This document shows, piece after piece, positions 6,210 through 26,176 of a stretch of DNA of 64,000 nt. The notes beneath the pieces were generated by a model. The model had not been told where the DNA came from, did no database searches, and worked only from the letters and a program-made list of their open reading frames with translations. How positions within the stretch are numbered: the stretch's first letter is position 1; each line of letters opens with the position of its first letter. The position numbers and the translations under genes are program-made. The stretch comes from Chitinophagaceae bacterium 26-R-25 (lineage in GTDB: Bacteria; Bacteroidota; Bacteroidia; Chitinophagales; Chitinophagaceae). The stretch spans positions 372,001 to 436,000 of the forward strand of contig JARWSJ010000002.1 in NCBI GenBank assembly GCA_029906195.1, in the 5' to 3' direction.

Positions 6210-8246
6210 ATGAAACCAGCTCTACTTACTTTGTTGCTTGTTGTAAGCTTTGGTATTTCTCGCTCGCAACTTGCTCCACACTATATGCCCCAGCAGCCAG
6301 GCGACACCTTACCTGGTGTGGGGTTTTACACTTATTTGCCACCCGACTACAACACGAATCCTGCTAATAAATTTCCTGTTATCATTGCATTGTCCGGCAA
6401 TGGCGAGAAAGGAAACGGAACAACTGATCTTGATAAAGTATTTACTTCTGGTATTGGCTTCTTAGTTAAGACTAAGAAAGCAACCATGAAATTCAGCTAT
6501 GCAAATGGAGTGCATGGTTCCTTTGTAGTGTTGCTTCCACAGCTGGATTCCAAATATCCTAACTGGGTGCCTGCTTATGTTGGCAGGGTGATTGCATGGG
6601 CGAAGCTTAACTTAAACATAGATCCCAACCGTATTTTTCTGACAGGCTACAGCCTCGGTGGAGGTGGTACCTGGATGTACCCCGCAGCAGGTGTGGACTC
6701 GGCGATGAGAATAGCAGGGATAGTTCCCGTGTCTGCTTCTGGTCTGGCGCCTTTTTTGGGAGAGAGTGCGTGCAACATCGCTTCTGGTGGCACTGCAATA
6801 TGGGCGATTCACACGAGGGATGACAACCAGATACCGGATAGCATTTCGAGGAAAATTATAGATTCGATCAAGCATTGCGGTCCAATAAGTCCCGTGGTAT
6901 TAGACAGTCCCATTGGCAATCACCAGATATATGATCTGAAAATATTTCCGGATACTGCCAATCAATTTGAGTATCCTAACATCTATCAATGGATGCTGGG
7001 AGTCAACAGACAAAATGTTGGAACAGCAAATCAACCACCTGTTGCAAATGGTGGCGCAACCGATTCGACGGTTAACGTATCTACGAGTTATCATTATCGC
7101 CAAACGATTTCCGGTGTTTTATCAACTGATCCCAACGATGTGATTGTAAAATATGTATGGAGTTGGGTTGCAGGAGATTCGTTAAAAATATTTCCATTTA
7201 ACTCTCCTGTCTACTATCTGCCGGTTAAGTTCTATGACAGCACGTGGCCGCGACTGGATCTAGACTACCGAAACATGACGTGGCCCGAGCAAAACTTTGA
7301 ATTCACCGCATTGGGGAACTACACTTTTAAACTAACAGTAACTGACATGTTTGGAGCGGTTTCTTCCGTTAACAAAACGATCAGACTCACAAACAATGGT
7401 GTGAACACTGCTCCATATGTGAGCATCGGAAACAATATTACATTGTCTGCAACCGCATCCGATACAAGCGCCAATATAAACGCTACTGTTTTTGACTGGG
7501 AGACTGCCAGCTTGACTAATTTTTCACTAACACCTGCCGGAACAAATCCGGCCACGGTCAAAAATGACGTTCCCGGATGGTTCCAGACCAAATTGCATCC
7601 TTTTACAACACCGGGAGTGTATAAGTTTACATTAACAGCAACAGATGGCCAGGGGTTATCAAATTCCAGCACCATTACAGTCACCAAGCAGGCGCCACTT
7701 CCAGTAACATATCTCTATTTCAATGGTGCAAACAACGATGGAAAAAACATTTTAAAATGGGCCACCAGCAAGGAGCTTAACAATGATCACTTTGATGTGC
7801 TGAAGAGCGATGATGGTGCAAATTTCTCACCTGTCGTTACTATCCCTGCATCTACTGCAGCTACTGAAACCAAAGAATATTCCTTTACTGACATCAATCC
7901 TTTTCCAGGTAGCAACTACTACAGGCTTGCCCAGTACGACATTGACGGTACAAAAAAATTATCTGACATCATCAATATCCGAAATGCCGGAAATACAGTC
8001 ATAGCAACCTATCCTAACCCCATAAAAGATCAATTGTATTTCACTGTAAAAGGCAGCGACATTAAAGGTCTTGTAAAAGCACGTGTACTGGATGCCTCAG
8101 GAAAAGTGGTGAAACAAATGAATTTTGAAAAGAACACCAGCGTTTCCAATCAAACCATTCAACTGCCTGGTTTGCAATCCGGCATTTATATTTTGGAATT
8201 GAGCCAGGACAATGGCTGGCAATCGGTCCATAGGTTTGTGAAGTAA
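6210..8246 (+). CDS. Secreted esterase-like hydrolase, short PKD region (paralogue 2)
   Basis: A 678-residue paralogue of the preceding gene. The signal peptide (about 1-19) ends near GISRSQ. The hydrolase domain has nucleophile elbow GYSLGGGG (Ser148), TRDDNQ and GNHQIYD, so Ser, Asp and His are all kept. The oxyanion segment reads LSGNGEKGNG where most paralogues have LHG. Only two divergent PKD-like units follow (about 275-490); they match the first two of paralogue 1. A linker starting YLYFNGANNDGKN (about 497) comes next, a type often seen before sorting domains. The C-terminus with TYPNPIKDQLYF and ending HRFVK is a type A T9SS sorting domain. The close match to the first part of paralogue 1 suggests these two are sister copies. 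A near-consensus -7 box (TAACTTTA) lies at 6181-6188. Confidence 0.85.
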   Translation: MKPALLTLLLVVSFGISRSQLAPHYMPQQPGDTLPGVGFYTYLPPDYNTNPANKFPVIIALSGNGEKGNGTTDLDKVFTSGIGFLVKTKKATMKFSYANGVHGSFVVLLPQLDSKYPNWVPAYVGRVIAWAKLNLNIDPNRIFLTGYSLGGGGTWMYPAAGVDSAMRIAGIVPVSASGLAPFLGESACNIASGGTAIWAIHTRDDNQIPDSISRKIIDSIKHCGPISPVVLDSPIGNHQIYDLKIFPDTANQFEYPNIYQWMLGVNRQNVGTANQPPVANGGATDSTVNVSTSYHYRQTISGVLSTDPNDVIVKYVWSWVAGDSLKIFPFNSPVYYLPVKFYDSTWPRLDLDYRNMTWPEQNFEFTALGNYTFKLTVTDMFGAVSSVNKTIRLTNNGVNTAPYVSIGNNITLSATASDTSANINATVFDWETASLTNFSLTPAGTNPATVKNDVPGWFQTKLHPFTTPGVYKFTLTATDGQGLSNSSTITVTKQAPLPVTYLYFNGANNDGKNILKWATSKELNNDHFDVLKSDDGANFSPVVTIPASTAATETKEYSFTDINPFPGSNYYRLAQYDIDGTKKLSDIINIRNAGNTVIATYPNPIKDQLYFTVKGSDIKGLVKARVLDASGKVVKQMNFEKNTSVSNQTIQLPGLQSGIYILELSQDNGWQSVHRFVK

Positions 8247-8671: not shown

Positions 8672-11600
8672 ATGAAAAGAATGCTATTACTATTGACCTT
8701 GTTCTCGTCCTATTTATCCTTCGGGCAGTTGACCCAACAGCATTTAACTGCCGCAAACGGAACAGCCATCGGTTTCTATCGATTCCTCCCCGCTGGTTAT
8801 AACCCCGCAAAAAAATATCCCATGATCGTATTCCTGCATGGCGCGGGGGAGGTTGGAAATGGTACAAGCGATTTAGGTAAAGTACTGAACAATGGAATTG
8901 GACGCCTGATTAGGTCTGGTGCAACGATGACCTTTACCGTAAATGGAGAAACCAGCAGCTTTATAGTTCTTATGCCACAGCTGGCTTCTAACTACGGTAA
9001 CTGGCAGGATTTCTATACCGATGAAATGATGAAATATGCCAAGGCCAATCTTAGCGTTGACCTGAACAGAGTATACCTCACAGGGTTAAGCCTTGGCGGT
9101 GGCGGAACCTGGCGATGGTCCAGCAGCGATACCACCCATACGATACAATTGGCCGGTATGGCCCCAATTTGCGGAACAGGAGAAACCCAGCAATATTTCT
9201 GTTGGGTAACCTATTACAGAGTAGCCTGTTGGGCATTCCATAATATGGATGATGGTACCGTGCCGGTTGGTAACACACAATATGCACAAATGACCCTCGA
9301 CAATTGCGACCCTAACCACAACGAAGTGCGTAAATTCACTTACTATCCAAGTGGCGGACACAATGCCTGGGATAAAGCTTATGATACCGGTCATGGCATT
9401 CAGAACCCCAACCTTTATGAGTTTTTCTTAATGAATCCAAGGAAGTCGCCTGATCCGGTACTACCTGTTGCCGAAGCAGGTCCGGATCAGGTTGTAAACT
9501 TTCCTCAAAACTCGGTTACTCTCGATGGCAGCAAATCTTACGATCCCAGTGGAGGTACAATAGTTTCCTATAAATGGACCGCCAAAGAACCAACGCTGCG
9601 CGGAGCCATTCAGAATCCTAACAGTGCGGTAACTACATATACTAATCTAAACCCTGGGCTGCATGTCGTTACCCTAGAGGTAACCAACAACAAGGGCCAG
9701 AAAGGCTATGACGTTGTAAACATTGGCGTTAAAGGCGATCCGGCACTCGACGTTCCACCAGTTGCTATAGCAGAAGCGGATACAACTATTAGTGCGCCAA
9801 GCGACAGCGTTCACCTGGATGGTCAGCAATCTTATGATCCCGACAATGCCATCATTGCCAGTTTCCGTTGGGAAAAAGCCTCCGGTGCGTCTGGCGACAA
9901 CATTGTAACACCTCAGGGATATAAAACATCAGTTAATGGATTAAAACCGGGCACCTATTGGTATCGCTTAACAGTTACAGATTTTACAGGCAAAGCCGGT
10001 GCAGATTCTGTAAAGGTTATTGTAAATCCGCCTCCGGCAAATAATAAACCACCGGTTGCAAATGCAGGAGATGATTTCTCCACCTCAGATAAATTTGCTT
10101 ACCTGAGCGCCGGCGCTTCTTACGACCCGGACGGCAAGATTACCACCTATCTGTGGTCACAGGTTTCCGGACCAAATACGGCAACCATTCTTTCCGGCAA
10201 TACAGTGTTCCCAACAGTTCAGGGACTCGTTTCCGGTAATTATAAGTTCCGTGTGCTCGTAACCGATAATTATGGAGCAACAGATGATGATACAGTGGCA
10301 TTGCAAGTGCTCGGAAGCAACAAAGCGCCAATTGCCAATGCGGGCCCGGATCAAAATCTTACATTACCAGCCAGCACAGCAATGCTTGATGGTAGCTTAT
10401 CCAGCGACCCGGATGGTACCATCACAACATATGCGTGGACAAAACTTAGTGGTCCTTCCGGTGGTAATATCGCCTCTCCTGGAAGTGCAAAGACACAGGT
10501 GAGCAATCTTGTGGCCGGCACATATACTTATCAGTTAGTAGTAACCGATAATATGGGCGCTACAGGCACTGCCACTACACGCGTCACAGTCGGAGTTTCA
10601 AGTAACAAGCCGCCGGTAGCAAATGCGGGCAACGACTTCAGTACCAATGACAATTTCGTTTACTTAAGCGCAGGTGCATCCTACGATCCTGATGGTAAAA
10701 TAGCAAGCTTCCTGTGGTCAAAGGTGAGCGGACCAAACAATCCTACTGTGTTGTCTGGCAACACCATGTTCCCAACCGTACAGGGCCTCATAGCAGGAAC
10801 CTACGTATACAGATGTGTAGTAACTGATAACGGTGGGGCAAGCAGCCAGGACGACGTTCAGTTTGTAGTAAATGCCAACAAGAATCCTGTTGCAGTTATC
10901 CCGAGCCAAATAGTGATTACCATTCCAGGTGGCAAATTTGACCTCAGTGCAACGCAATCTTTCGATCCCGACGGAACCATTGTTTCTTACATGTGGAGCC
11001 TTTCACATCCAGGCATCGTGAACTTGTCGGCAACAGACAAGAGTATGATTTCTCTGTCAGGACTGGTTTCTGGAGCCATTGATTTACAACTTACCGTTAC
11101 CGATAACAGAGGCGGTATAGGTACTGCAGTCGTACACGTAATAGTTACGACCAACAAGCCGCCTGTGGCAAAAGCAGGATTTGATTTTGTAACAGCAAAT
11201 TCATGGGCATACCTGAGCGGTGCAGGTTCATATGATCTTGATGGCCACATTGTTTCATTCGCGTGGACGCAGGCTCAAGGACCAAGTACGGCTAATATCC
11301 TGGGCGCAAATACAATGTTCCCAACCGTTTCATCACTTGTACCAGGTATCTACAGGTTCAATTTGGTAGTAACTGACGACGCCGGATTCTCATCCAGTGA
11401 CTATGTAACGGTCGTAGTAATACCATCTAACAGTGAAACCGTTGTTCCTAATCAGCTTCTGGTCGGAACACTCAGAAACGATCTGTCGGCAAATGGTGGT
11501 ACTGCATTACTGTATCCAAATCCGGTACGCGAAACAGCCAAGCTATTATTGAACAACACACTTACCGGAAAAGTGCAAATAGTAGTATTCGACGCTACAG

Positions 11601-11752
11601 GTAAAATGCAAATGACAGCGAACTACGATAAACGTACTTCAGACTTCCAACAACAACTGGATGTTTCCAAACTTCCTCAGGGTGTTTACTATATGCGAAT
11701 AATGGTAGATGGAAAATCTGCGAGCGCTGTTAAAAAGTTCATTAAACTATAA
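8672..11752 (+). CDS. Secreted esterase-like hydrolase with seven PKD-type units (paralogue 3)
   Basis: A 1026-residue protein from the chosen ATG. An upstream in-frame TTG at 8618 would add 18 residues before an otherwise normal signal peptide, so it was not used. The signal peptide (1-18) ends near LSFGQ. The hydrolase domain (about 22-265) has LHGAGEVGNG, GLSLGGGG (Ser140), MDDGTV and GGHNAWD. About seven PKD-like units follow, of which the third, fifth and seventh are the YLSxGxSYD..NTMFPTV subtype and the others the TLDG subtype. The sorting domain starts near LLYPNPVRETAKL and ends KKFIKL. A strong intrinsic terminator follows at once. The sorting domain is closer to that of paralogue 6 than to its neighbours, a sign of segment exchange within the array. 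Confidence 0.87.
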   Translation: MKRMLLLLTLFSSYLSFGQLTQQHLTAANGTAIGFYRFLPAGYNPAKKYPMIVFLHGAGEVGNGTSDLGKVLNNGIGRLIRSGATMTFTVNGETSSFIVLMPQLASNYGNWQDFYTDEMMKYAKANLSVDLNRVYLTGLSLGGGGTWRWSSSDTTHTIQLAGMAPICGTGETQQYFCWVTYYRVACWAFHNMDDGTVPVGNTQYAQMTLDNCDPNHNEVRKFTYYPSGGHNAWDKAYDTGHGIQNPNLYEFFLMNPRKSPDPVLPVAEAGPDQVVNFPQNSVTLDGSKSYDPSGGTIVSYKWTAKEPTLRGAIQNPNSAVTTYTNLNPGLHVVTLEVTNNKGQKGYDVVNIGVKGDPALDVPPVAIAEADTTISAPSDSVHLDGQQSYDPDNAIIASFRWEKASGASGDNIVTPQGYKTSVNGLKPGTYWYRLTVTDFTGKAGADSVKVIVNPPPANNKPPVANAGDDFSTSDKFAYLSAGASYDPDGKITTYLWSQVSGPNTATILSGNTVFPTVQGLVSGNYKFRVLVTDNYGATDDDTVALQVLGSNKAPIANAGPDQNLTLPASTAMLDGSLSSDPDGTITTYAWTKLSGPSGGNIASPGSAKTQVSNLVAGTYTYQLVVTDNMGATGTATTRVTVGVSSNKPPVANAGNDFSTNDNFVYLSAGASYDPDGKIASFLWSKVSGPNNPTVLSGNTMFPTVQGLIAGTYVYRCVVTDNGGASSQDDVQFVVNANKNPVAVIPSQIVITIPGGKFDLSATQSFDPDGTIVSYMWSLSHPGIVNLSATDKSMISLSGLVSGAIDLQLTVTDNRGGIGTAVVHVIVTTNKPPVAKAGFDFVTANSWAYLSGAGSYDLDGHIVSFAWTQAQGPSTANILGANTMFPTVSSLVPGIYRFNLVVTDDAGFSSSDYVTVVVIPSNSETVVPNQLLVGTLRNDLSANGGTALLYPNPVRETAKLLLNNTLTGKVQIVVFDATGKMQMTANYDKRTSDFQQQLDVSKLPQGVYYMRIMVDGKSASAVKKFIKL

Positions 11753-12839: not shown

Positions 12840-15422
12840 ATGAGATCCTTTTTACTCGGTCTGTTAGTGCTGATTAGTGCTTCCTCCTCTTTCGCACAGC
12901 AAGTTGCGAAATCAATGACATCCTCTGCAGGTTTGTTTGTTGGCTTCTATGATTTTAGGCCACCTGGCTATGTAGCGTCCAACACTACCAAAAAGTATCC
13001 ATTGATCATATTTCTCCATGGCATTGGAGAGCGTGGTAATGGTACAACCGATCTTCCCAATGTTTGTGCAAACGGTATACCTCGCAATATAAAGTGGGGC
13101 TCTACAATGACTTATACAGTTAATGGCGTTACCGAAAGCTTCCTGGTATTGTCTCCGCAATTGGATACAAAGTATGGCGGCTGGGTGAATGGCTATGTAG
13201 ATGCCATGCTTGAATATGCAAAAGCAAATCTTAACTACGATCCTGATCGCGTGTACCTTACCGGCTTAAGCGCCGGCGGTGGTGGCACATGGGACTATGT
13301 ATCCAACAAAGCGGGTAACGCCGGCATTTTCGCCGCAATTGCCCCTGTGTGCGGTTCCAGCTACACTGCTTATGGTATGTGCTACATTGCACAGGCACAC
13401 CTTCCCGTATGGGCCTTCCACGCTGTGGATGATGGTACCGTACCGGTAAGCATGACTCAAAATGCAATAGCGCTGATTAATAAATGCTCACCAGCTCCAA
13501 ATCCTGCACCAAAAGTAACCTACTATGCTGCAGGCCTTGGTGGACACGGTATTTGGTATATGAGCTACGATGAAACGCACACGTATGCCAATCCAAATCT
13601 TTATGAATGGTTCCTCTCAAAAAGAAGAAGCACAAATGGTAATGGTGTGAACCAGGCACCTGTTGTGCAACTGACAAATGATATTTCCCTTGTTCTACCA
13701 ACAAATTCTACAACGCTTGATGCAAGCAAATCTTATGATTTTGATGGTACTGTAGCATCTTATAGCTGGACGCAGGTATCTGGTCCTTCGACGGCTGCAA
13801 TTGCATCTGCTACCTCTGCAACTACAAAAGTTAGTAACATGGTGGAAGGAACATATGTGTTCCAGGTAAAAATTACTGACGATAAAGGCGCGAGTTCAAC
13901 TGGTCAATTAAAAGTATTGGTTCAGACAACTTACGGTGCTGACCTGGCACCAATATGTAAAGCTGGTGATGATTTTACTTCTGCTAACAGCACTGTATAC
14001 TTAAGCGGTGCGGGATCTTATGATCCTGATGGCAAAATTGCAACCTACCAGTGGTATCAAATCGCCGGACCTGCAACGGCAACTATTACTGATGGCACGA
14101 CTCCTTTCCCAACTATCAGTAAGTTAGTTACCGGGAACTACAAATTCAGATTGGTGGTAACCGATAATGTTGGTAAACCTGCCGACGACACAGTAGCAGT
14201 TAGTATATCAACCGGCTCTGTTGTACTTGTTCCGCCGGTAGTAAAGATCACCGGTACAACCACCATTACTTTGCCAACAAATACGACAACACTTGATGGT
14301 AGCAGTTCTATCAGTAGCAATGCCAATGGAACGATCAGCAGCTATCAGTGGTCACAGGTTTCTGGTCCTAATACCGCAACGTTTGGCACAGCTACCGCAA
14401 AAGCTACAACTGTAAATGGACTGGTAGCGGGCACTTACAGCTTCCAGTTGAAAGTAACAGATAACCTTGGTTCAACAGGAACAACAACAGTTACAGTTAC
14501 AGTGAAAGCATCTACCGGCAGCAACAAAGCGCCGATAGCCAATGCCGGTGCGGATTTCACCACACAATACAAAGACTACGCATACCTGAGTGGTGGTGCT
14601 TCATACGATCCTGACGGAAGTATCGCAACGTGGGCATGGACGCAAATAAGCGGACCAAACACGGCAAAGATCGTTTCAGGAAACTCTATGTTCCCAACCA
14701 TCAACAATATGGTAGCTGGTACTTATACATTCAGATTAACAGTAACAGATAATCTTGGAGCAACTGCTTCCGATGATGTGAACGTATCACTCGGTTCAAC
14801 TGGCAAACCTCCGGTTGCGAATGCAGGTAACGATTTCAGCACATCTAACAACTATGCATACCTGAGCGGCGGTGCATCATACGATCCTGATGGCAGCATA
14901 ACAGGATGGGCATGGTCACAGGTAAGCGGACCAAATACTGCATCAATACTTTCAGGAAACTCAATGTTCCCAACAGTTCAAAGTCTTGTCGCAGGATCTT
15001 ACACTTTCCGCGTGAAAGTAACTGATAACAGCGGTCAGTCTGCAACTGATGACGTAGTGTTAACCGTAACAGCAAAAACTGCAACAGCAGCGCTGGCCGG
15101 ATCTGTAAGCACACAAGCGTTGAGTGTAGATGTAAATGCAGGATCTACTAAGGTGAATGACCTGGCAAAAGAACCAACCATTTATCCAAACCCTGCAACC
15201 AACCAGATCACTGTTACATTCACTAATGATTTTGTCGGCAACTACAAATTCTTAGTGTACGATGTGAAAGGAAAAGTTGTAACTCAATATAATTATTCTA
15301 AGCAGGCGGGTCAGGTACAGCAAAAGCTTGACATTTCAAAACTGCCTGCAGGAATGTACTATTTGGAAACTATTTATGAGGGCAACCAGAAGGCTGTCAG
15401 CAAAAAGTTTGTAAAACTGTAG
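12840..15422 (+). CDS. Secreted esterase-like hydrolase with five PKD-type units (paralogue 4)
   Basis: An 860-residue protein. The ATG at 12840 is preferred over the in-frame TTG two codons earlier because it starts a clean signal peptide, MRSFLLGLLVLISASSSFAQ. The hydrolase domain has LHGIGERGNG, nucleophile elbow GLSAGGGG (Ser144; Ala replaces the usual Leu, as in paralogue 7), VDDGTV and GGHGIW. Five PKD-like units follow in the subtype order B-A-B-A-A (A: YLSGGxSYDPDG; B: TLDGS). The type A T9SS sorting domain begins near IYPNPATNQITV and ends KKFVKL. It is nearly identical to that of paralogue 5, including the 20-odd residues before it, which points to recent duplication or gene conversion. 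Export through the outer membrane is expected; the substrate is unknown. Confidence 0.87.
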   Translation: MRSFLLGLLVLISASSSFAQQVAKSMTSSAGLFVGFYDFRPPGYVASNTTKKYPLIIFLHGIGERGNGTTDLPNVCANGIPRNIKWGSTMTYTVNGVTESFLVLSPQLDTKYGGWVNGYVDAMLEYAKANLNYDPDRVYLTGLSAGGGGTWDYVSNKAGNAGIFAAIAPVCGSSYTAYGMCYIAQAHLPVWAFHAVDDGTVPVSMTQNAIALINKCSPAPNPAPKVTYYAAGLGGHGIWYMSYDETHTYANPNLYEWFLSKRRSTNGNGVNQAPVVQLTNDISLVLPTNSTTLDASKSYDFDGTVASYSWTQVSGPSTAAIASATSATTKVSNMVEGTYVFQVKITDDKGASSTGQLKVLVQTTYGADLAPICKAGDDFTSANSTVYLSGAGSYDPDGKIATYQWYQIAGPATATITDGTTPFPTISKLVTGNYKFRLVVTDNVGKPADDTVAVSISTGSVVLVPPVVKITGTTTITLPTNTTTLDGSSSISSNANGTISSYQWSQVSGPNTATFGTATAKATTVNGLVAGTYSFQLKVTDNLGSTGTTTVTVTVKASTGSNKAPIANAGADFTTQYKDYAYLSGGASYDPDGSIATWAWTQISGPNTAKIVSGNSMFPTINNMVAGTYTFRLTVTDNLGATASDDVNVSLGSTGKPPVANAGNDFSTSNNYAYLSGGASYDPDGSITGWAWSQVSGPNTASILSGNSMFPTVQSLVAGSYTFRVKVTDNSGQSATDDVVLTVTAKTATAALAGSVSTQALSVDVNAGSTKVNDLAKEPTIYPNPATNQITVTFTNDFVGNYKFLVYDVKGKVVTQYNYSKQAGQVQQKLDISKLPAGMYYLETIYEGNQKAVSKKFVKL

Positions 15423-15439
15423 CACCAGGTAATGTGCTC

Positions 15440-15588
15440 ATTTGAAAATTTGAAAATTGTCTCTGTGTGGCTTCTCTGTTGTGGGTTCAGTCTCTTTGAA
15501 TATTGGAGAGTTGGCAAAACATTGGAAAGGATACACCGGCAGCATTTTCAAATTTTCAAATCCTCAAATTTTCAAATTTGAAAATTGG
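15440..15588. repeat. Foldback repeat, TTTGAAAATTTGAAAATTG family
   Basis: The left arm at 15440-15459 pairs with the longer right arm at 15544-15588. It fills most of the gap between paralogues 4 and 5. The same family occurs at 18539-18692. Confidence 0.75.
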
Positions 15589-15636
15589 GTAAACCGTAGT
15601 TGTATGAAATGATGTTTTTTCAAAAATGATTAAATT

Positions 15637-18534
15637 ATGAAAAGTATTTTACTTATTGCGGGGATTTTGTGTTTGTCGGTGTTTGCCGGAGCGCAACAGG
15701 TAGCTCGTAGTTTAACTGCAACGAACGGTAAGAAGATCGGGTTTTATGAATATAAGCCTACGGATTATTCTACATCAAAAAAATATCCCCTTATTATTTT
15801 CCTCCATGGGATTGGAGAGAGAGGCAATGGCACAACAGATCTTCCAAGAGTGTTGGCAAATGCCACTCCACGCATGATCAGAGCAGGCAACACCATGACT
15901 TTCACCAATCCTAAAACAGGGGTTCGCGAAACGTTTCTTGTGTTGACTCCTCAATTAGACGTACAATACGGCAGTTGGGAAAACTTTTATGTGGACGAAA
16001 TGTTGAAGTACGCCAAAGCTAATCTTAGCATCGATCCAAATCGCGTGTTTCTATGCGGGCTCAGCCTTGGTGGCGGTGGTGTTTGGAAATATGCAACCAA
16101 CTCATTAAAAAATGCCAGTCAGTTTGCCGGCATCATTCCATGTTGTGGAACTGGTGAAGGAACTGACTTTTGTAATCTTAATAAGGCAAAAACGGCCGTA
16201 TGGGGATTCCATGCTATGGACGACGGAACTGTAGGAGTGGGAAATACACAGTACGCACAAATTAAATTGGCACAGTGTACCCCCGCCATGACTGCGAAGT
16301 TTACTTACTATGCATCAGGCGGACATGGTATTTGGGAAAGAGCTTTCGATCCTGGCCATGGCTTTCAAAATCCTAACGTGTACGAATGGATGCTTGGTTT
16401 ATCTCGTGATGGTAATAATAATGACAACCAGGGACAAGACAATAACAACCAGGGCAAACCTCAGGTTCCTAATGTTGTACCTGTTTCAAACGCAGGCGGT
16501 GACCAGGCAATTACGTTACCTGTAAACACCGTAACATTAAACGGAACCGGTTCAAAAGACAGCGACGGTTCAATTAAAAAATATGCATGGACAAAAGTAA
16601 GCGGACCTGCCGGTGGCACCATTGCGTCTCCATCTGATGCAACAACAAAGGTTAACGGCCTTACTGTAGGTACATATGTGTTCCAGTTAACTGTAATAGA
16701 TGATCAAGGTGCAACTGCTTCTGATAATGTTACCGTTTCCGTAAACGCAGCTGTAGTGGTTAACTTACCGCCAACAGCAGACGCGGGAGCTGCACAAACA
16801 ATTACATTGCCTGTGAACAGTGTAACATTGAACGGAACAGGCTCAAAAGATAGTGATGGTAAGATTAAAAAATATGGATGGACAAAAGTAAGCGGACCAG
16901 CTGATGGTTCTATTGCGTCTCCATCTGATGCGACAACAAAAGTTAACGGACTTTCAGCAGGTACTTATGTGTTCCAGTTAACTGTAACGGATGACGACGG
17001 AGCAACTGCTTCTAAAAATGTATCCATTTCTGTAAATCCAGCTGTAGTGGTTAACACGCCACCAACAGCCGACGCAGGTGATGCACAAACAATTACATTA
17101 CCTGTAAACAGTGTAACATTAAACGGAACAGGATCAAAAGACAGCGACGGTAAAATTAAAAAATATGCATGGGCAAAAGTAAGCGGACCATCTGCTGGTG
17201 CTATTGCTTCTCCAAATGATGCAACAACAAAAATTGCCAGTTTGATAGTGGGTGGTTATGTATTCCGGTTGACAGTAACGGATGACGGCGGCGCAACTTC
17301 TTATAGTGATGTAGTGGTTACTGTGAAGCCGGCTGTGGTTCCAATTAACCAGCCGCCAACAGCAGATGCCGGTGATGCGCAAACTATTACGCTGCCAGCA
17401 AACAATGTAACACTCAATGGTGACGGCTCAAAAGATAGTGATGGTAAAATCGTAACTTATACATGGACGAAAATAAGTGGACCGGCATCAGGCACAATTG
17501 CTACGCCGTCTGCAGTATCAACGAAGGTTACTGGCCTGGTTGAAGGTGCATACATTTTCAATTTAACGGTGACAGATAACGCAGGCGCAACTGCTTCAGC
17601 CACTGTTTCGGTTACGGTAAAACCAGTTGTTGTGGCCAACAAACCGCCAGTGGCGAAGGCCGGAGATGATTTCTCTACAGCAAATACCTATGCGTATTTG
17701 AGTGGCGCAGGTTCTTATGATCTGGATGGAAGCATCGTGTCATGGACATGGAAGCAACTGAGCGGACCAAACACTGCAACCGTTCTTTCCGGAAACACAA
17801 TGTTCCCGACAATTGAAAACCTGGTTTTGGGTACTTATACTTTCAAATTAACAGTAACAGATAATTCTGGTGCAAGCGTTTCCGATGAAGTAAAAGTAAC
17901 AGTCATTCCGGGCAAAGTGCCGATCGCCAATGCAGGTACCGATTTCAGTACATCTAACAATTATGCATACCTGAGCGGCGGTGCATCATACGATCCCGAC
18001 GGAAGTATAAAAGGATGGGCATGGTCACAGGTAAACGGGCCAAACAAAGCGTCCATACTTTCTGCAGACGGAATGTTCCCAACAGTACAAAACCTTGTTG
18101 CAGGGGCTTATACGTTCCGCTTAAAAGTAACGGACAACAGTGGTCAGTCTGCAACGGACGATATAGTAGTAACGGTAAAAGCGAATACGGCTAAATCTGC
18201 GGTAGCAGGTAGTAGCTTGAGCACACAAGCTTTGGGAACAGATGTAAATGTAGGATCTACTAAGGTGAATGATCTGGCGAAAGAACCAAGCATTTATCCA
18301 AATCCTGCAACAAACCAGATCACTGTTACGTTCAACAATGATTTTGTTGGCAACTACAAATTCGTAGTGTACGATGTTAAAGGAAAAATTGTAACTCAAT
18401 ATAATTATTCTAAGCAAGCGGGTCAGGTGCAACAGCAGCTTGACATTTCAAAACTGCCTGCAGGAATGTATTATTTAGAAACTATTTATGAAGGCAGTCT
18501 GAAACCTGTCATCAAGAAGTTCGTGAAACTTTAG
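15637..18534 (+). CDS. Secreted esterase-like hydrolase with six PKD-type units (paralogue 5)
   Basis: A 965-residue protein with signal peptide MKSILLIAGILCLSVFAGAQ. The hydrolase domain has LHGIGERGNG, GLSLGGGG (Ser143), MDDGTV and GGHGIW, with a CCGTGEG motif. Its N-terminal domain is nearly the same as that of paralogue 6 over about 250 residues. A low-complexity Asn/Gln/Asp linker (about 264-285) leads into six PKD-like units. Four consecutive B units (PPTADAG...ITLPVNSVTLNG) are very similar to one another at protein and DNA level, then two A units follow. The sorting domain (IYPNPATNQITV to KKFVKL) is almost identical to that of paralogue 4. The gene thus looks like a mosaic of its two neighbours. 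Function and export are as for the other copies. Confidence 0.87.
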   Translation: MKSILLIAGILCLSVFAGAQQVARSLTATNGKKIGFYEYKPTDYSTSKKYPLIIFLHGIGERGNGTTDLPRVLANATPRMIRAGNTMTFTNPKTGVRETFLVLTPQLDVQYGSWENFYVDEMLKYAKANLSIDPNRVFLCGLSLGGGGVWKYATNSLKNASQFAGIIPCCGTGEGTDFCNLNKAKTAVWGFHAMDDGTVGVGNTQYAQIKLAQCTPAMTAKFTYYASGGHGIWERAFDPGHGFQNPNVYEWMLGLSRDGNNNDNQGQDNNNQGKPQVPNVVPVSNAGGDQAITLPVNTVTLNGTGSKDSDGSIKKYAWTKVSGPAGGTIASPSDATTKVNGLTVGTYVFQLTVIDDQGATASDNVTVSVNAAVVVNLPPTADAGAAQTITLPVNSVTLNGTGSKDSDGKIKKYGWTKVSGPADGSIASPSDATTKVNGLSAGTYVFQLTVTDDDGATASKNVSISVNPAVVVNTPPTADAGDAQTITLPVNSVTLNGTGSKDSDGKIKKYAWAKVSGPSAGAIASPNDATTKIASLIVGGYVFRLTVTDDGGATSYSDVVVTVKPAVVPINQPPTADAGDAQTITLPANNVTLNGDGSKDSDGKIVTYTWTKISGPASGTIATPSAVSTKVTGLVEGAYIFNLTVTDNAGATASATVSVTVKPVVVANKPPVAKAGDDFSTANTYAYLSGAGSYDLDGSIVSWTWKQLSGPNTATVLSGNTMFPTIENLVLGTYTFKLTVTDNSGASVSDEVKVTVIPGKVPIANAGTDFSTSNNYAYLSGGASYDPDGSIKGWAWSQVNGPNKASILSADGMFPTVQNLVAGAYTFRLKVTDNSGQSATDDIVVTVKANTAKSAVAGSSLSTQALGTDVNVGSTKVNDLAKEPSIYPNPATNQITVTFNNDFVGNYKFVVYDVKGKIVTQYNYSKQAGQVQQQLDISKLPAGMYYLETIYEGSLKPVIKKFVKL

Positions 18535-18538
18535 TCAA

Positions 18539-18692
18539 TATGAAAATTTGAAAATATGAAAATTTGAAAATGTAATACGGCGGTCTTTCCGGTGTGTCGC
18601 AAACCCTCAAACACTTAAAGAGGTATGATTAAAGTGTTGAGAACTTGCACAGAAACTATTTTCAAATTTCCATATTTTCAGATTCTCAAATT
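18539..18692. repeat. Foldback repeat, AAATTTGAAAATATG family
   Basis: The left arm at 18539-18572 (tandem TATGAAAATTTGAAAA words) is mirrored at 18659-18692. It begins just after the stop of paralogue 5. Confidence 0.75.
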
Positions 18693-19397
18693 ATTATCGT
18701 CAAACCTTATCCATTCTAAAAAAAATTCCGGCTGTGGCTTGCCGTTAAGTGGCCTGCCATGCTGTGAAAATGTGTTAACCCTGATTTCTCTTATTGCATA
18801 ATACTTTGTAAAAGAGATCACTAACATAGTTTACTATGTAAAGATGGTCTTGCTCGTAATCCTGCTTTCTGGAAGGGGATTGCCTGGGCACAAGGTGATG
18901 CTTACAGCGTGCTATTGCTTGCTCGCATTATCAGCAAATGTGAAGAGTGAATTCGAGACAATGGTTTCCACTTCCCCGAGGGGGAGTGCTTCTAAACGTT
19001 TGTGCCATGCAGTTAGCAGAGCAATAAAAAGCTTAAGTTTTTTTCAGTCGACATCCGAAAACGGCATCCTTATTGGCTTTCGAGATAACTCAAATGGATC
19101 AATGCAGCGTCGGTGTGTAGTCGGTTCAAAAAATATTCGAATCGGATATTTTTTTAAGATTGAAGTTATGTGGTATAGAAATTGGTGCGTAATCGATCAA
19201 CCAAAAACCTTTATGAGACTGACCCGGTACTTACTTTCGAGGTGAAATGTTTTGAAGACGTTATTGCAAATTCACAAAAGAGTTATGTCAAGGATTTGAA
19301 ATTGTGTTGAGAGCAAATTTGATTTCGTTAGAAAAGTAGTAGTAAACAGTATTGTATAAACAGGTATTTTTTAGTGAATCCTTGAATTAATTTTTTT
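18693..19397. other. 0.7-kb intergenic region with two small palindromes, no supported gene
   Basis: Contains ACATAG-TTTA-CTATGT at 18824-18839 and, just before it (18796-18820), a 25-bp stretch including AATACTTTGTAAA that closely matches one upstream of the membrane glycosyltransferase at 30.4 kb. An AT-rich dyad with T-run, AAAAATATTCGA/ATCGGATATTTTTT, lies at 19129-19154 and could act as a weak terminator. A 133-codon open frame (18844-19245) has no protein-like composition and was not accepted as a gene. Confidence 0.45.
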
Positions 19398-21950
19398 ATG
19401 AAAAATCTTTTACTCATTGTGGGCATTGTATGCCTATCCCTATTCGCTAATGCGCAAGAAGTTGCACGTAGCTTAACAGCCGCTAATGGCACAAAAATCG
19501 GGTTTTACGAGTATAAACCCACGAGTTACACGACCTCGAAAAAATACCCTCTTATTGTCTTCCTGCACGGAATTGGGGAACGAGGTAATGGTACTACTGA
19601 CCTGTACAAGGTTAATGCAAACGCCATACCGCGCCTTATCAGTGCAGGCAATACCATGACATTTACTAACCCTAACACAGGGATAGCCGAAACATTCCTT
19701 GTACTTGCCCCTCAATTAGACGTACAATACGGTAGTTGGGAAACATTTTATGTAGATGAAATGTTGAAGTATGCCAAGGCAAATCTTAGCATCGATCCAA
19801 ATCGTGTGTTCCTTTGTGGGCTTAGCCTTGGTGGCGGTGGTGTTTGGAAATATGCAACCAACTCCCTGGCAAATGCTTCTCAGTTTGCCGGCATTATTCC
19901 ATGCTGCGGTACCGGTGAAGGAACTTATTTCTGTAACCTTGCCGATGCAAAAGTTGCAGTTTGGGCTTTTCACGCAATGGACGATCCTACTGTAGGGGTG
20001 GGAAATACACAGTATGCGCAAATCAAATTGGGACAATGCCCCAACCTCACGGTACAGCCTAAGTTCACTTACTACCCATCTGGCGGACACGGCATTTGGG
20101 AATGGGCTTTCGACCCCGGTCATGGCATTCAGAATCCTAACGTATATGAGTGGATGCTTACGCTCTCCCGCGCAAATAACGGAGCGACTCCTCCGGCAGT
20201 TCCTGCGAATGTGTTGCCAGTGGCAAATGCAGGTGCGGCTCAGGCAATTACTTTACCTACGAGCACAGTAACATTAAACGGCAGTGGCTCTACAGATAGC
20301 GACGGTACAATCGCCAGCTACTCATGGACAAAAGTAAGCGGACCTTCTGTAGGAGTAATCACTTCTCCGTCGTCTGCTACAACAACAGTTACCGGCTTGA
20401 TCGCAGGTACTTATGTTTTCCAACTAACAGTAACCGATAACTCTGGTGGAACTTCCTCAGCCAATGTAACAATCTCTGTTAACTCGGCTTCGATTGTCAA
20501 TGTTCCTCCAACTGCTGTTGCAGGTGCTAATCAAGCAATTACATTGCCTACAAGCGCAGTAACATTAGACGGTAGCGGTTCGAAAGATGCGGATGGCAGC
20601 ATTTCAAGATATGCATGGTCACAGGTAAGCGGTCCTTCTGCATCAACTATCGCTTCTCCAACCACCGCATCAACACAGGTTACAGGACTAATAGCAGGAA
20701 CTTATGTGTACCAGTTAACAGTATACGACAACAATGCAGCAACGGCCACATCTAATGTAACAATTACTGTAAATGCTGCTGTTAACAATAACAAAGCACC
20801 TGTTGCAAACGCAGGAAATAATTTCACCACTACAAACAACTATGCATACCTGAGTGGTGGCGGATCTTATGATCCTGATGGAAGTATTACAAAATGGGCA
20901 TGGTCGCAAGTCAGCGGTCCTGGCACTGCAACAATATTAGCGGGTGATGGTATGTTCCCGACTGTGAAAGATCTTGTTGGTGGTGTGTATGTTTTCAACC
21001 TAACAGTAACGGATAACCAGGGAGCGTCAGCTTCTGCAACGGTTTCCCTCACTGTAGGTACAAACAAACCTCCGGTAGCAAGCGCAGGCGGTAACTTTAA
21101 TGTACAACTTCCTCAGGGAACTGTAACATTGGATGGTAGCCTGTCTTACGATCCTGATGGTACCATTTCAACTTATGAGTGGACAAAAGTGAGCGGACCA
21201 ACGGGAGGAACTATTGTTACGCCTTCAGGCAAAACATCCCAATTAACAGGATTGATCGCCGGCACCTATGTATATCAGGTGAAGGTGACTGACAATGGTG
21301 GTCTTACCGCAACGGCACAGGTGACTGTAACAGTACTTGCTGCAAACAATAATAACAAAGCGCCTTATTGCAACGCAGGAAACAATTTCACGTCTTCAAA
21401 CAACTATGTATACCTGAGTGGTGGTGCTTCTTATGATCCTGATGGAAAAATCGTAACATGGGCATGGAGCCAGGTATCCGGACCAAACACAGCGACTGTA
21501 ATTGCAGGAAACTCAATGTTCCCGACAGTTCAGGGCTTAGTTGCAGGAACCTACGTGTTCAACCTCACAGTTACAGATGATTTAGGTGCTACGGCTTCTG
21601 CGCAGGTTTCATTCACTACTACCACAACAGTAAAAACAGCAGCTACGCCTTCTACAACAAGCATCGTGTCTGCTGATACAAAAGCGGTTGCTACAACAGC
21701 GTCACTCAGTCTGAGTCCTAATCCGGCACAGAGCTACGTGAACCTTGTAGTGAATAACGAAGCAACCGGTAAAATGAAAGTGCTGATCTTCGACGCAACC
21801 GGAAAAGCCGCGAAGACAATTGAATACAGCAAAGGACAATTCGATTTCCGTCAGCAAATAGACATTACAAGCCTTTCACAAGGTGTGTACTATATGCAAA
21901 TAGTGCTGGATGGCAAATCACTTCCAACGCAGAAATTCGTTAAACTATAA
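19398..21950 (+). CDS. Secreted esterase-like hydrolase with five PKD-type units (paralogue 6)
   Basis: An 850-residue protein with signal peptide MKNLLLIVGIVCLSLFANAQ. The hydrolase domain, nearly identical to paralogue 5, has LHGIGERGNG, GLSLGGGG (Ser143), MDDPTV and GGHGIWEWAFD. Five PKD-like units follow in the order B-B-A-B-A. The sorting domain (LSPNPAQSYVNL to QKFVKL) differs from that of paralogue 5 and resembles paralogue 3, so the head and tail of this gene have different closest relatives within the array. The sequence from the last codons to shortly past the stop (21937-21970) is repeated at 23765-23798 on the far side of the T6SS cassette. A strong intrinsic terminator follows. 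Confidence 0.87.
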   Translation: MKNLLLIVGIVCLSLFANAQEVARSLTAANGTKIGFYEYKPTSYTTSKKYPLIVFLHGIGERGNGTTDLYKVNANAIPRLISAGNTMTFTNPNTGIAETFLVLAPQLDVQYGSWETFYVDEMLKYAKANLSIDPNRVFLCGLSLGGGGVWKYATNSLANASQFAGIIPCCGTGEGTYFCNLADAKVAVWAFHAMDDPTVGVGNTQYAQIKLGQCPNLTVQPKFTYYPSGGHGIWEWAFDPGHGIQNPNVYEWMLTLSRANNGATPPAVPANVLPVANAGAAQAITLPTSTVTLNGSGSTDSDGTIASYSWTKVSGPSVGVITSPSSATTTVTGLIAGTYVFQLTVTDNSGGTSSANVTISVNSASIVNVPPTAVAGANQAITLPTSAVTLDGSGSKDADGSISRYAWSQVSGPSASTIASPTTASTQVTGLIAGTYVYQLTVYDNNAATATSNVTITVNAAVNNNKAPVANAGNNFTTTNNYAYLSGGGSYDPDGSITKWAWSQVSGPGTATILAGDGMFPTVKDLVGGVYVFNLTVTDNQGASASATVSLTVGTNKPPVASAGGNFNVQLPQGTVTLDGSLSYDPDGTISTYEWTKVSGPTGGTIVTPSGKTSQLTGLIAGTYVYQVKVTDNGGLTATAQVTVTVLAANNNNKAPYCNAGNNFTSSNNYVYLSGGASYDPDGKIVTWAWSQVSGPNTATVIAGNSMFPTVQGLVAGTYVFNLTVTDDLGATASAQVSFTTTTTVKTAATPSTTSIVSADTKAVATTASLSLSPNPAQSYVNLVVNNEATGKMKVLIFDATGKAAKTIEYSKGQFDFRQQIDITSLSQGVYYMQIVLDGKSLPTQKFVKL

Positions 21951-22586: not shown

Positions 22587-23363
22587 ATGATGGAAATTAA
22601 TTTTCCTTCAAGCACGGCCTTAAATGTGCTGCCTGGCCGTTGTTTGCCTACGGTAATAGCGGAAAGCGATGTGAGGCCTTTATTTGATAAAGACGGAGCC
22701 ATCGCAGAAGATATGCGTTTCCATGACAAGCCACGTCTTACAAAAGCGATGGCGATAAGCGACAGTTTTTTGTATGGTACGACAGATTCTAAACTATTTG
22801 CAGATATGGAAAGCCTTATTAGCAAGTTATCATATGGTGCTTACTACACCGTAGCAAGACGGATGTTTGAGCATTTTAAATTAAGCCGTGGAGGACAGTT
22901 CGCAGATGAATTGTTGAATGAATTAGTATCGCAAGATGTGTCATTTGTAGAATGGTGTAATTATTTTTTCAGAAAACTAAGCGAATGGATAAAAGAAGAA
23001 AAAGGGAATGTTTGTAATATGAAGAAGAAAACTATTCAACGATTTTCGTTTGATTGTTTTGATCATCGCTGGCATGGATTGGGTATCATGATTCACCAAG
23101 TCCAAGCAATTGATGTTGAGTTATTGGAATTTGAAATGAATGAAAAGAATGGAAATTATAAAGGCAAAGTGAAAATTCACCTGTATGATCATTTTGGGCT
23201 AGATAAAGTAGATGTTGAAAAAGGCCACGCTCGATATACACAACCTTGGGGAAGTGAGGATGGTTTTAAAGCGTGGTGGATATTGCAGCATTATCGTTGG
23301 TGTAAACCTTTCTTGACACATATTGAGATTACAAAAAGCTTTCATTCTAAAAGTAACAATTAA
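22587..23363 (+). CDS. DUF3289-like protein, putative T6SS effector
   Basis: A 258-residue protein without signal peptide or membrane segment. The second half matches what I recall of DUF3289 (YPO3983-like) proteins: KVKIHLYDHFGLDKVDVEK (about 192-211) and GFKAWWILQHYRWCKPFLT (about 226-244), followed by IEIT. The first half has the FHDKPRLTKAMA region and a helical stretch through about residue 145, also in line with the family. DUF3289 proteins are best known from enterobacteria, where some occur with T6SS genes; the biochemical activity is not established to my knowledge. The position directly after a free-standing TssD and before a lipoprotein argues for a secreted toxin. Base composition is visibly more AT-rich than the esterase genes around it, suggesting separate acquisition. 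The start is ATG-ATG; either may be used. Confidence 0.72.
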   Translation: MMEINFPSSTALNVLPGRCLPTVIAESDVRPLFDKDGAIAEDMRFHDKPRLTKAMAISDSFLYGTTDSKLFADMESLISKLSYGAYYTVARRMFEHFKLSRGGQFADELLNELVSQDVSFVEWCNYFFRKLSEWIKEEKGNVCNMKKKTIQRFSFDCFDHRWHGLGIMIHQVQAIDVELLEFEMNEKNGNYKGKVKIHLYDHFGLDKVDVEKGHARYTQPWGSEDGFKAWWILQHYRWCKPFLTHIEITKSFHSKSNN

Positions 23364-23837: not shown

Positions 23838-23838
23838 A

Positions 23839-23986
23839 AATTAAGAATTAGGAATTAAGAATTAAGAATTGTTCCATCGCAACAGTCAATCTATTTATTT
23901 GCATTGCCTTTAAGGCTAAACATAGTGGTACAAGAATTAGCAGGAACGCTACACAGAAAGAATTCTTAATTCCTAATTCTTAATTT
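23839..23986. repeat. Foldback repeat, GAATTAGGAATTAAGAATT family
   Basis: The left arm at 23839-23871 and right arm at 23959-23986 enclose about 87 bp of unrelated sequence. The rest of the gap to 24256 holds nothing certain; a near-consensus -7 box, TATTCTTTG, lies at about 24132-24140. Confidence 0.78.
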
Positions 23987-24256
23987 GTTTTTCCCTCCAT
24001 TCGCCCCTTTACCACCATTTTTAACGTTAAACTACTACCGCCTTCCGTATTTTCCACATGCCTAACGCGCTGTAATAAACGAAAATCTGTGTTAAGTCTT
24101 CAAAACAAATATTCTGATTTCTAATCATTTGTATTCTTTGTATGGAAAAATACTTGCCCGGGCGGCAATTCCACAAACGATTTTATACATGTTTTACGTT
24201 TTACAAGCAGCTTGGGCAATGCTATATACCCTGATTTCTTAATCCAATGTATGAGT

Positions 24257-26176
24257 ATGAAAACAATTCTCCTCAGTGTGGGGCTGCTTCTGGTAACTCT
24301 TGGTATTTCTGCGCAGCAGGTGGCAAAATCTCTTACCTATAATGGGCTGTTTGTAGGTTACTACGAATACAAGCCTACTTCTTACGGTTGGAGTTCAACA
24401 AAAAAATATCCCCTGATGATTTTTCTTCATGGGGTGGGAGAAAGAGGAAATGGTACTACTGACTTGTATAAAGTCGCATTCAATGGTCCTCCAAAAAACA
24501 TTGCAGGGGGTTCGCAAATGGCCTTTACTGTGAACGGCGTAAAAGACACGTTCCTGGTATTATCGCCCCAGTTGAGCCTCACTTACACGGGATGGATCAA
24601 CAATTACGTGGATGCCATGTATAACTACGCAACGGCCAATCTGCAGGTAGACCCCAACAGGGTTTATCTCACGGGATTGAGTGCAGGCGGTGGTGGTGTG
24701 TGGGACTACGTGACCAGTGACCCTGCGAATGCGCCAAAATTTGCCGCGGTTGTTGTAAGCTGCGGTGTGGCTCCGGCCAACACAAATGGCATCTGTTACA
24801 TGAACCAGGCGAATTTGCCTGTATGGGCATTTCACGCCATGGACGATCCAACTGTGCCTGTAGGCTATACACAAGCCCTTATAGATAAAATGAACAACGG
24901 TTGCACCCCTTCACCTGATCCATATCCCCTGGCAAAATATTTCCCTTCCGGCGGCCATGGCATCTGGGGCTGGGTATACGATGAAACACACGCTTATCAA
25001 AATCCAAACGTTTATGAATGGATGTTGATGCATACAAGAGGCGTTGCACCGGTAGACCAGCTGCCTGTTTCAAAAGCCGGTAATGATACGATCATTGTAC
25101 TTCCTGCAAACAAGGCATCGCTGAATGGCGGCGCTTCGTATGATGCCGATGGTACCATTGCCGAATATAAATGGACAAAAATTGCCGGCCCCGATAACTT
25201 TACCATTACAACCCCTGCCGCGAGTGCGACAACCGTAACAGGCATGGTTACGGGAACTTACACTTTTGTTCTGCGCACGTTGGATTATTACGGCAAGGCC
25301 GGTTTCGATACAATGACTGTGACCATTAAACCCGGTATCGGTGCAAACGTACCGCCTGTGGCAAATGCAGGAAATGACTTCAGTACCACGAATAACTATG
25401 CATATCTGAGTGGTGGTGGTTCGTATGACCCTGACGGTAGTATTATTGCCTATACCTGGAAACAACTGACTGGCCCTGCAATAACGCTTGTTAATGCCCA
25501 AAGCTCGTTCCCAACGGTACAAAGTGTCGTGGGTGGTATATACAAATTCCAGCTTACCGTGTATGATAACATGGGAGCTTCCGCTTCCAATTTTGTAACA
25601 ATGACCAATCCAACGGGATTGTTGCCTGTAGAATTTTTGTACATAAAAGCTACTAAAGTAAACGGAAAAAACACTGTGCAGTGGGCAACGGACAAAGAAA
25701 CCAACACAGATCATTTTGATGTGCAGAGAAGCGAAGACGGAACAACATTTATGACCATTGGAAATGTTGCAGCCGCTGGTAGTTCTGCCTCTACAAAAGA
25801 ATATTTGTTCACAGATAATCAGTACACAAAAACAAAATATCTGTACAGGCTTCAGGAAGTAGACAAAGACGGTGCGATTAAATTTTCTAAAATTGTTTCC
25901 GTAGCTGATAACGATAACAAAGGTGGTGCAACTATTTATCCTAACCCTGTAAAGGAAAGCTTAAACATAGCCATCAACAATACCGAAAAAGGAAACGGTG
26001 TGATCAATTTGTATGGTATTGACGGTAAACTAATACAACGCCAGGTATTCTATAAATCACAGACGGATTATTACACCAGCATCAACGCACAAAGCCTCAA
26101 AGCCGGCATTTATTTGGTAGAAGTAAGCGTGGGAGATAAGTATAAGACGGTGGAGAGAATGGTGAAAGCCAACTAG
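24257..26176 (+). CDS. Secreted esterase-like hydrolase with two PKD-type units (paralogue 7)
   Basis: A 639-residue protein. The ATG at 24257 gives signal peptide MKTILLSVGLLLVTLGISAQ. An ATG at 24251 is equally possible, and the longer TTG frame from 24212 is unlikely. The hydrolase domain has LHGVGERGNG, GLSAGGGG (Ser142), MDDPTV and GGHGIWGWVYDETH, and is closest to paralogue 4. Two PKD-like units (B then A) are followed by a linker of the EFLYIKATKVNGKNTVQW type, shared in kind with paralogue 2. A type A T9SS sorting domain (IYPNPVKESLNI to ERMVKAN) ends the protein. It is separated from the other six by the T6SS cassette and closes the array. Product: exported hydrolase, substrate unknown. 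Confidence 0.87.
   Translation: MKTILLSVGLLLVTLGISAQQVAKSLTYNGLFVGYYEYKPTSYGWSSTKKYPLMIFLHGVGERGNGTTDLYKVAFNGPPKNIAGGSQMAFTVNGVKDTFLVLSPQLSLTYTGWINNYVDAMYNYATANLQVDPNRVYLTGLSAGGGGVWDYVTSDPANAPKFAAVVVSCGVAPANTNGICYMNQANLPVWAFHAMDDPTVPVGYTQALIDKMNNGCTPSPDPYPLAKYFPSGGHGIWGWVYDETHAYQNPNVYEWMLMHTRGVAPVDQLPVSKAGNDTIIVLPANKASLNGGASYDADGTIAEYKWTKIAGPDNFTITTPAASATTVTGMVTGTYTFVLRTLDYYGKAGFDTMTVTIKPGIGANVPPVANAGNDFSTTNNYAYLSGGGSYDPDGSIIAYTWKQLTGPAITLVNAQSSFPTVQSVVGGIYKFQLTVYDNMGASASNFVTMTNPTGLLPVEFLYIKATKVNGKNTVQWATDKETNTDHFDVQRSEDGTTFMTIGNVAAAGSSASTKEYLFTDNQYTKTKYLYRLQEVDKDGAIKFSKIVSVADNDNKGGATIYPNPVKESLNIAINNTEKGNGVINLYGIDGKLIQRQVFYKSQTDYYTSINAQSLKAGIYLVEVSVGDKYKTVERMVKAN

What the first reader, a model, noticed from the sequence alone, without database searches (positions are those of the whole stretch)
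12840..21950. Mosaic genes within the array: heads and tails have different closest relatives
Paralogues 5 and 6 share nearly identical hydrolase domains but different sorting domains. Paralogues 4 and 5 share nearly identical sorting domains but more distant hydrolases. The sorting domain of 6 is closest to 3. This points to domain exchange by recombination through the PKD repeats.
Basis: seen in the sequence. Interest (0 to 1): 0.55.

Follow-up and report, generated by a model that had tools for sequence, protein, structure and literature searches.

The report
Mosaic stalked esterase genes in Pinibacter
Neighbouring genes for secreted esterases in a soil bacterium have swapped pieces, so the enzyme end and the anchoring end of one gene have different closest relatives; relatives elsewhere in the bacterial family show the same uncoupling, with enzyme ends becoming alike within a lineage while anchor ends stay distinct.

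Summary
Confirmed: a seven-gene tandem array of signal peptide, alpha/beta-hydrolase, PKD repeats and T9SS type A sorting tail contains real chimeras. Heads of genes 5/6 are 83% identical (aa) and tails 30%; tails of 4/5 are 86% and heads 55%. "Nearly identical" is overstated. Head and tail trees reject each other (AU 1e-9 and 1e-5). Genes 1, 4 and 5 share one tail lineage on three head lineages. The same mosaic stands in three Pinibacter species, so it is older than the species and not an assembly error. Beyond the window, in two other genera heads group by genus and tails by class. In one genome a 651-nt tract inside the hydrolase alone is 90% identical, with flanks at 56-63%: gene conversion that needs no PKD crossover. 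Stalk length tracks tail class (2, 5-9, 9-17 PKDs). Best reading: domain-restricted gene conversion among tandem paralogues, a new variant of a known process. A "same enzyme on stalks of graded length" meaning is possible but untested.

The parts
2288..6034 (+). gene 1: hydrolase head (head lineage 1/2), 9 PKD units, tail of the 1/4/5 lineage
6210..8246 (+). gene 2: hydrolase head (lineage 1/2), degenerate PKDs, own tail
8672..11752 (+). gene 3 (ORF from 8618, likely ATG 8672): head of lineage 3/5/6, 7 PKD units, tail of lineage 3/6 (tail 11429-11752)
   Evidence: start by comparison with the congeners
12840..13655 (+). gene 4 head: alpha/beta-hydrolase, head lineage 4/7
13656..15077 (+). gene 4 PKD units 4.1-4.5
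15078..15422 (+). gene 4 tail: T9SS type A sorting domain, 86% aa to tail 5
14417..15457 (+). shared tract of gene 4 with gene 5 (17532-18571): 78% nt over 1050 columns; steps at the 4.3/4.4 and 4.4/4.5 borders
15637..16479 (+). gene 5 head: hydrolase, 83% aa to head 6; invariant Ser143, Asp196, His230
16480..17625 (+). gene 5 PKD units 5.1-5.4, the type shared with gene 6 units 6.1-6.2
17644..18186 (+). gene 5 PKD units 5.5-5.6, like gene 4 units 4.4-4.5 (nt 73% and 83%)
18187..18534 (+). gene 5 tail: type A sorting domain of the 1/4/5 lineage
15635..17045 (+). shared tract of gene 5 with gene 6 (19396-20782): 72% nt over 1418 columns
19398..20216 (+). gene 6 head: hydrolase of lineage 3/5/6
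20217..21629 (+). gene 6 PKD units 6.1-6.5
21630..21950 (+). gene 6 tail, sorting domain of the 3/6 lineage
24212..26176 (+). gene 7: head of lineage 4/7, 2 PKD units, tail nearest the 2-PKD 'short' class of other genera
15440..15585 (.). interspersed inverted-octamer element directly behind gene 4 (also behind gene 5 at 18538-18691); not behind the other five array genes

Best explanation
The genes are genuine chimeras made by homologous recombination (gene conversion) between tandem paralogues for surface-bound esterases. Shown: head and tail have incompatible genealogies, and the mosaic is shared by three Pinibacter species. Inferred: gene 5 combines the head and first PKDs of the 3/6 lineage with the last PKDs and tail of the 1/4 lineage, the join lying between PKD units 5.4 and 5.5; the last PKD and tail of 4 and 5 were probably exchanged at least once more. 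Shown for relatives: heads and tails are uncoupled across the family. Catalytic heads become alike within a lineage, in one case by a tract confined to the hydrolase domain, while the sorting tail and the stalk class (PKD number) stay with the locus. Inferred function: extracellular esterases on PKD stalks, exported and processed by the type IX system.
For: Head/tail contrast; AU tests: the head alignment rejects the tail topology (p=1.3e-9), the tail alignment rejects the head topology (p=1.4e-5) and also rejects pairing 5 with 6 (0.00025), 4 with 7 (0.002) and 1 with 2 (0.002). Steps at PKD borders. Two other genera: heads reject grouping by class (p=0.0004) and tails reject grouping by genus (p=0.001), also without G175/G267 (p=0.001 and 0.02). 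G175 tract: 587/651 nt identical inside, 77/138 and 183/291 outside; silent-site fragment test p=0.0002, Bonferroni 0.006.
Against: Renewed exchange of 4/5 tails after speciation is weak: orthology p-AU is 0.050 for last PKD+tail, 0.26 for the tail alone, 0.025 for the last PKD; the protein tail tree groups 4s with 4s and 5s with 5s; silent-site fragment tests are not significant (W4-W5 p=0.25, A4-A5 p=0.10). Silent sites do not separate 5/6 heads from tails (p=0.59). My fragment test on all sites is confounded by uneven constraint, and one cross-species pair also reached Bonferroni 0.027 at silent sites. In genus g85 heads keep orthology within the genus. G175, the clearest tract, is a MAG by contig match.
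Confidence: 0.85

Rival explanations
1. Static ancient chimera: one duplication made 5 and 6, one tail replacement at 5 (or 6) followed, and nothing has been exchanged since. Still recombination, but no continuing conversion in Pinibacter.
For: Orthologues of 5 and of 6 heads group across species (hyd356 tree, 89 and 86); PKD 4.4/5.5 follows orthology and concerted grouping is rejected (p<0.001); protein tail tree keeps 4s and 5s apart; silent-site tests in 4/5 not significant.
Against: Last PKD+tail favours W/A 4 with 5 (UFB 90, orthology p-KH 0.024, p-AU 0.050); unit 5.6 of the window is nearer to 4.5 of all three species (82-84%) than to 5.6 of P. soli (76%).
Confidence: 0.4
2. No recombination: heads of 5/6 and tails of 4/5 are alike because of selection on the protein.
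For: 5/6 silent sites do not differ between head and tail (p=0.59).
Against: Four-fold sites of 4/5 differ 44/68 in the head and 29/87 in last PKD+tail (p=0.0002; A p=2e-6; B p=0.002); topologies conflict strongly.
Confidence: 0.04
3. Horizontal acquisition of a head or tail from another species instead of exchange inside the array.
For: Not excluded for the oldest joins; no genome outside the genus with a gene closer than 62% to head 5 was listed among the 294 searched.
Against: Tails 1,3,4,5,6 form a Pinibacter-only clade (UFB 99) and heads 5/6 a Pinibacter-only clade (UFB 100) among 70 genes.
Confidence: 0.06
4. Assembly error in repeats.
For: PKD units are repetitive.
Against: Unit counts of genes 3,4,5,6,7 agree in three assemblies (7,5,6,5,2) and the shared parts are only 72-86% identical at nt level, too diverged to be collapsed.
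Confidence: 0.01

Closest known systems
Porphyromonas gingivalis gingipains and HagA (RgpA, Kgp; PMC5266723, passages read)
   Same: T9SS cargo with a catalytic head, repeated modules and a C-terminal sorting domain; modules rearranged independently of the catalytic domain ('variants of the P. [quoted passage not shown]
   Different: There described as strain-level rearrangement and allelic exchange of adhesin domains in one species; here between tandem paralogues, older than the species, involving head and sorting tail and unrelated enzyme and stalk domains.
RF1-RF2 partial gene conversion (PMC4530459, outline and abstract read)
   Same: Conversion confined to one domain shared by two paralogues, shown by sliding windows and ML trees.
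   Different: Two cases between the two release-factor genes (not known to me as tandem; recalled); here repeated in a secreted multi-domain family, mostly tandem.
Long-lasting concerted evolution in prokaryotes (PMC6053082, passages read)
   Same: Paralogues within a lineage more alike than orthologues.
   Different: That survey covers full-length genes and names part-of-gene cases as future work; here only the head is concerted and the tail of the same gene is not.
4q82, phospholipase/carboxylesterase of Haliangium ochraceum
   Same: Closest solved relative of head 5 by sequence (E 1.6e-23) and fold (TM 0.69/0.82).
   Different: 30% identity; the solved chain (277 residues) has no room for a PKD stalk or sorting tail.

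Membership tests
T9SS type A cargo | C-terminal type A sorting domain PF18962/TIGR04183 above cut-off | tested here: met
   7 of 7 genes above the Pfam cut-off of 27 bits (36.8-56 bits); TIGR04183 above cut-off in 5 of 5 scanned
T9SS type A cargo | T9SS machinery in the same genome | tested here: met
   SprA_N PF14349 (528 bits) and three PorV-family proteins over cut-off in G000; other components not sought
T9SS type A cargo | actual secretion and cleavage of the tail | not testable with these tools
   needs an experiment
alpha/beta-hydrolase esterase | fold, and invariant Ser-Asp-His | tested here: met
   model pLDDT 90, best fold match 4q82; S143, D196, H230 invariant in 25 of 25 aligned heads; their geometry in the model was not measured
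alpha/beta-hydrolase esterase | named subfamily (PHB depolymerase TIGR01840, NF050058) | tested here: not met
   best scores 31.1 and 48.2 bits against cut-offs 107.85 and 150
gene conversion between paralogues | bounded tract of raised identity, also at silent sites | tested here: met
   met for G175 long/mid: 4-fold same 74/93 inside, 2/10 and 11/35 outside
gene conversion between paralogues | the same for the Pinibacter 4/5 tract | tested here: inconclusive
   all-site tests significant (W4-W5 Bonferroni 0.048, A4-A5 0.003), silent-site tests not
concerted evolution | paralogues closer than orthologues | tested here: met
   met for heads of two other genera
concerted evolution | the same for Pinibacter heads 5/6 | tested here: not met
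   orthologues group

The most novel reading that the evidence does not exclude
These families are 'one enzyme on stalks of fixed, graded length': gene conversion keeps the catalytic heads alike within a lineage, while each locus keeps its own stalk class and matching sorting tail (short: exactly 2 PKDs in 11 of 11; mid 5-9; long 9-17), so that a cell displays the same esterase at several distances from its surface and the tail type carries locus- or site-specific information.
Probability: 0.27. Interest if true: 0.7.

Novelty: new variant of a known kind. Interest (0 to 1): 0.48.

Why it matters
Concerted evolution in bacteria has been surveyed for whole genes, and part-of-gene cases were named as future work (PMC6053082). 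Here heads and tails of one gene follow different rules, in a family with many replicates. A T9SS review asks whether different secretion signals are linked to different functions or final places of the cargo (PMC10202324, passages read). Homologous heads, some of them very alike, joined to distinct, class-conserved tails and stalk lengths are a natural experiment for that question. It is also a warning that naming orthologues in such families by best hit of the enzyme domain gives wrong answers.

Tried and rejected
Assembly artefact: rejected. Whole-gene duplication alone: rejected by conflicting trees. Recent conversion of 5/6 heads in Pinibacter: looked for, not found; orthologues group and the silent-site test is p=0.017 before and 0.25 after correction (the all-site test, which is confounded, gave Bonferroni 0.012 for W5-W6). 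Conversion including the 3' interspersed element: elements behind 4 and 5 are 56-68% alike, against a background mean of 58-59% and maximum of 67%, so undecided. Spread of head conversion to the unlinked 'short' genes: heads favour grouping by genus but grouping of all short heads is not rejected (p-AU 0.079). All-site fragment tests were set aside as confounded by uneven constraint. Literature: searches listed no paper on this array; the held library lacks most subscription journals.

Rows dropped: of 50 hydrolase ORFs in 34 stretches from 19 genomes, one, truncated at a contig end without a tail, was left out. The 19 genomes were chosen by me from the 55 of 294 with a match, mainly for long open frames. 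Classes long, mid and short were assigned by me from the tail tree; the long class is not one supported clade in that 70-gene tree, but grouping by class is the ML tail tree in the 20-gene set.

Full report
What is there. The window (from a Pinibacter genome, 6.5 Mb in 6 contigs) holds seven tandem genes on the + strand, each a signal-peptide-like N-terminus, an alpha/beta-hydrolase head, PKD repeats of the K319L-like type and a T9SS type A sorting tail. PKD units number 9, degenerate only (gene 2), 7, 5, 6, 5 and 2. The genome holds SprA and three PorV-family proteins, so a type IX system is likely present. Head 5 folds as an alpha/beta-hydrolase (pLDDT 90), closest to the carboxylesterase 4q82; Ser143, Asp196 and His230 are invariant in 25 of 25 aligned heads. 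The substrate is unknown; the heads fall below the cut-offs of the PHB-depolymerase models.

The observation. Heads 5/6 are 83% aa identical (75% nt) and their tails 30%; tails 4/5 are 86% (85% nt) and their heads 55%; tail 6 is closest to tail 3 at 40%. The pattern is real, but none of it is 'nearly identical'. The head alignment of all 21 genes of three species rejects the tail topology (AU 1.3e-9) and the tails reject the head topology (1.4e-5).

Age and artefact. Two congeners carry all seven genes in the same order; contig lengths identify them as P. aurantiacus MAH-26 and P. soli MAH-24. Both show the same mosaic. Unit counts of genes 3-7 agree; gene 1 has 10 in P. aurantiacus and 9 in the others. 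So the joins are older than the species and not assembly errors.

Where the joins are. Between genes 4 and 5 the nt identity is about 45-65% in unit 4.3/5.4, mostly 66-78% in 4.4/5.5, then 78-95% in the last unit and most of the tail, with a dip to 68% in the linker between them; blastn extends the tract to 14417-15457 and 17532-18571. Both steps fall at PKD borders. The 5/6 tract runs from the start codon through about the second PKD (15635-17045 with 19396-20782).

Is exchange continuing? Heads 5/6 and unit 4.4/5.5 follow orthology. The last unit and tail prefer a tree in which 4 and 5 of the window species and P. aurantiacus group (UFB 90), and orthology is at p-AU 0.050 (0.025 for the last unit, 0.26 for the tail alone). 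Unit 5.6 of the window species is nearer to unit 4.5 of all three species (82-84%) than to unit 5.6 of P. soli (76%). Against this, the protein tail tree keeps 4s and 5s apart and silent-site tests are not significant. I call it suggestive. Inside gene 5, units 5.2-5.4 are alike in P. soli (86, 85, 79%), but units 5.1-5.3 are alike in the window species (80, 80, 74%), a sign of within-gene homogenisation.

The wider pattern. Of 294 family genomes, 55 had a head match at 1e-30. I read 50 hydrolase ORFs from 19 of these genomes and kept 49, plus the 21 Pinibacter genes. In two genera, g3 (Pseudobacter/Pseudoflavitalea by contig match for two members) and g85 (Paraflavitalea/Niastella by contig match for three), all five members read in each had a tandem 'long' gene followed by a 'mid' gene, and a 'short' gene elsewhere. 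These are 5 of 6 g3 and 5 of 5 g85 genomes in the collection; the sixth g3 genome, 88% complete, gave two matches and was not read. Tails group by class: grouping by genus is rejected (p=0.001). Heads group by genus: grouping by class is rejected (p=0.0004). Leaving out the two genomes with the strongest within-genome head grouping gives p=0.02 and 0.001. Same-genome long/mid heads are 58-84% identical and tails 27-38%.

A direct conversion tract. In G175 the long and mid genes are 587/651 nt identical (90%) from residue 57 to 273 of the long protein, ending 8 residues before the first PKD, with 77/138 and 183/291 on either side; four-fold sites agree in 74/93 inside, 2/10 and 11/35 outside (Fisher 1e-30 for nt and 1e-8 for four-fold sites). 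Silent-site fragment test p=0.0002. So conversion can act on the hydrolase domain alone. Caveat: by contig match this genome is a MAG, though a tract at 90% is not a collapsed repeat.

Stalk length. By tail class, PKD counts are 2 in 11 of 11 short genes, 5-9 in 12 mid and 9-17 in 11 long genes; long exceeds mid in 10 of 10 genomes (sign test p=0.002, not corrected for shared ancestry). Unit number varies widely, yet the order holds. This is the base for the display hypothesis in the section on the most novel reading; no function was tested.

Mechanism. Shown: conflicting genealogies, shared joins, PKD-border steps in 4/5, a bounded tract in G175. Inferred: homologous recombination between neighbours, using head or PKD homology. 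A genome-wide inverted-octamer element (208 exact 18-mers, control 0) sits directly behind genes 4 and 5 in all three species and not behind the window's other five array genes. It may mark the right end of the 4/5 tract, but its copies behind 4 and 5 are not clearly more alike than the background.

Known and new. Domain-wise conversion between bacterial paralogues is known (RF1/RF2, PMC4530459, outline and abstract), whole-gene concerted evolution is known (PMC6053082, passages), and so is module rearrangement in T9SS surface proteins (PMC5266723, passages). What I did not find in the searches listed is this family or the head/tail decoupling across genera. Hence 'new variant of a known kind'.

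Noticed in passing
15440-15585, 18538-18691, 33302-33327; genome-wide: Interspersed element: arrays of the octamer ATTTGAAA in inverted orientation about 90-130 nt apart, with a short inner inverted motif in many copies; 208 exact 18-mers in the genome against 0 for the reversed control. Looks like a MITE- or REP-like element; no transposase was sought.
   Followed up: partly
23838-23986: Same architecture with a different octamer (AAATTAAGAATTAGGAATTAAGAATT, arms 100% complementary, 97 nt apart), between genes 6 and 7.
   Followed up: no
22587-23363: A DUF3289 gene in about 1.8 kb present between genes 6 and 7 only in the window genome; no match in the two congeners.
   Followed up: partly
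16480-17625: PKD units of gene 5 are homogenised differently in different species: 5.1-5.3 alike here, 5.2-5.4 alike in P. soli.
   Followed up: partly
2288-6034: Gene 1 has 9 PKD units here and in P. soli but 10 in P. aurantiacus: recent unit gain or loss.
   Followed up: no
25070-25714: A 214-aa open frame antisense to gene 7, probably a by-product of PKD codon usage.
   Followed up: no
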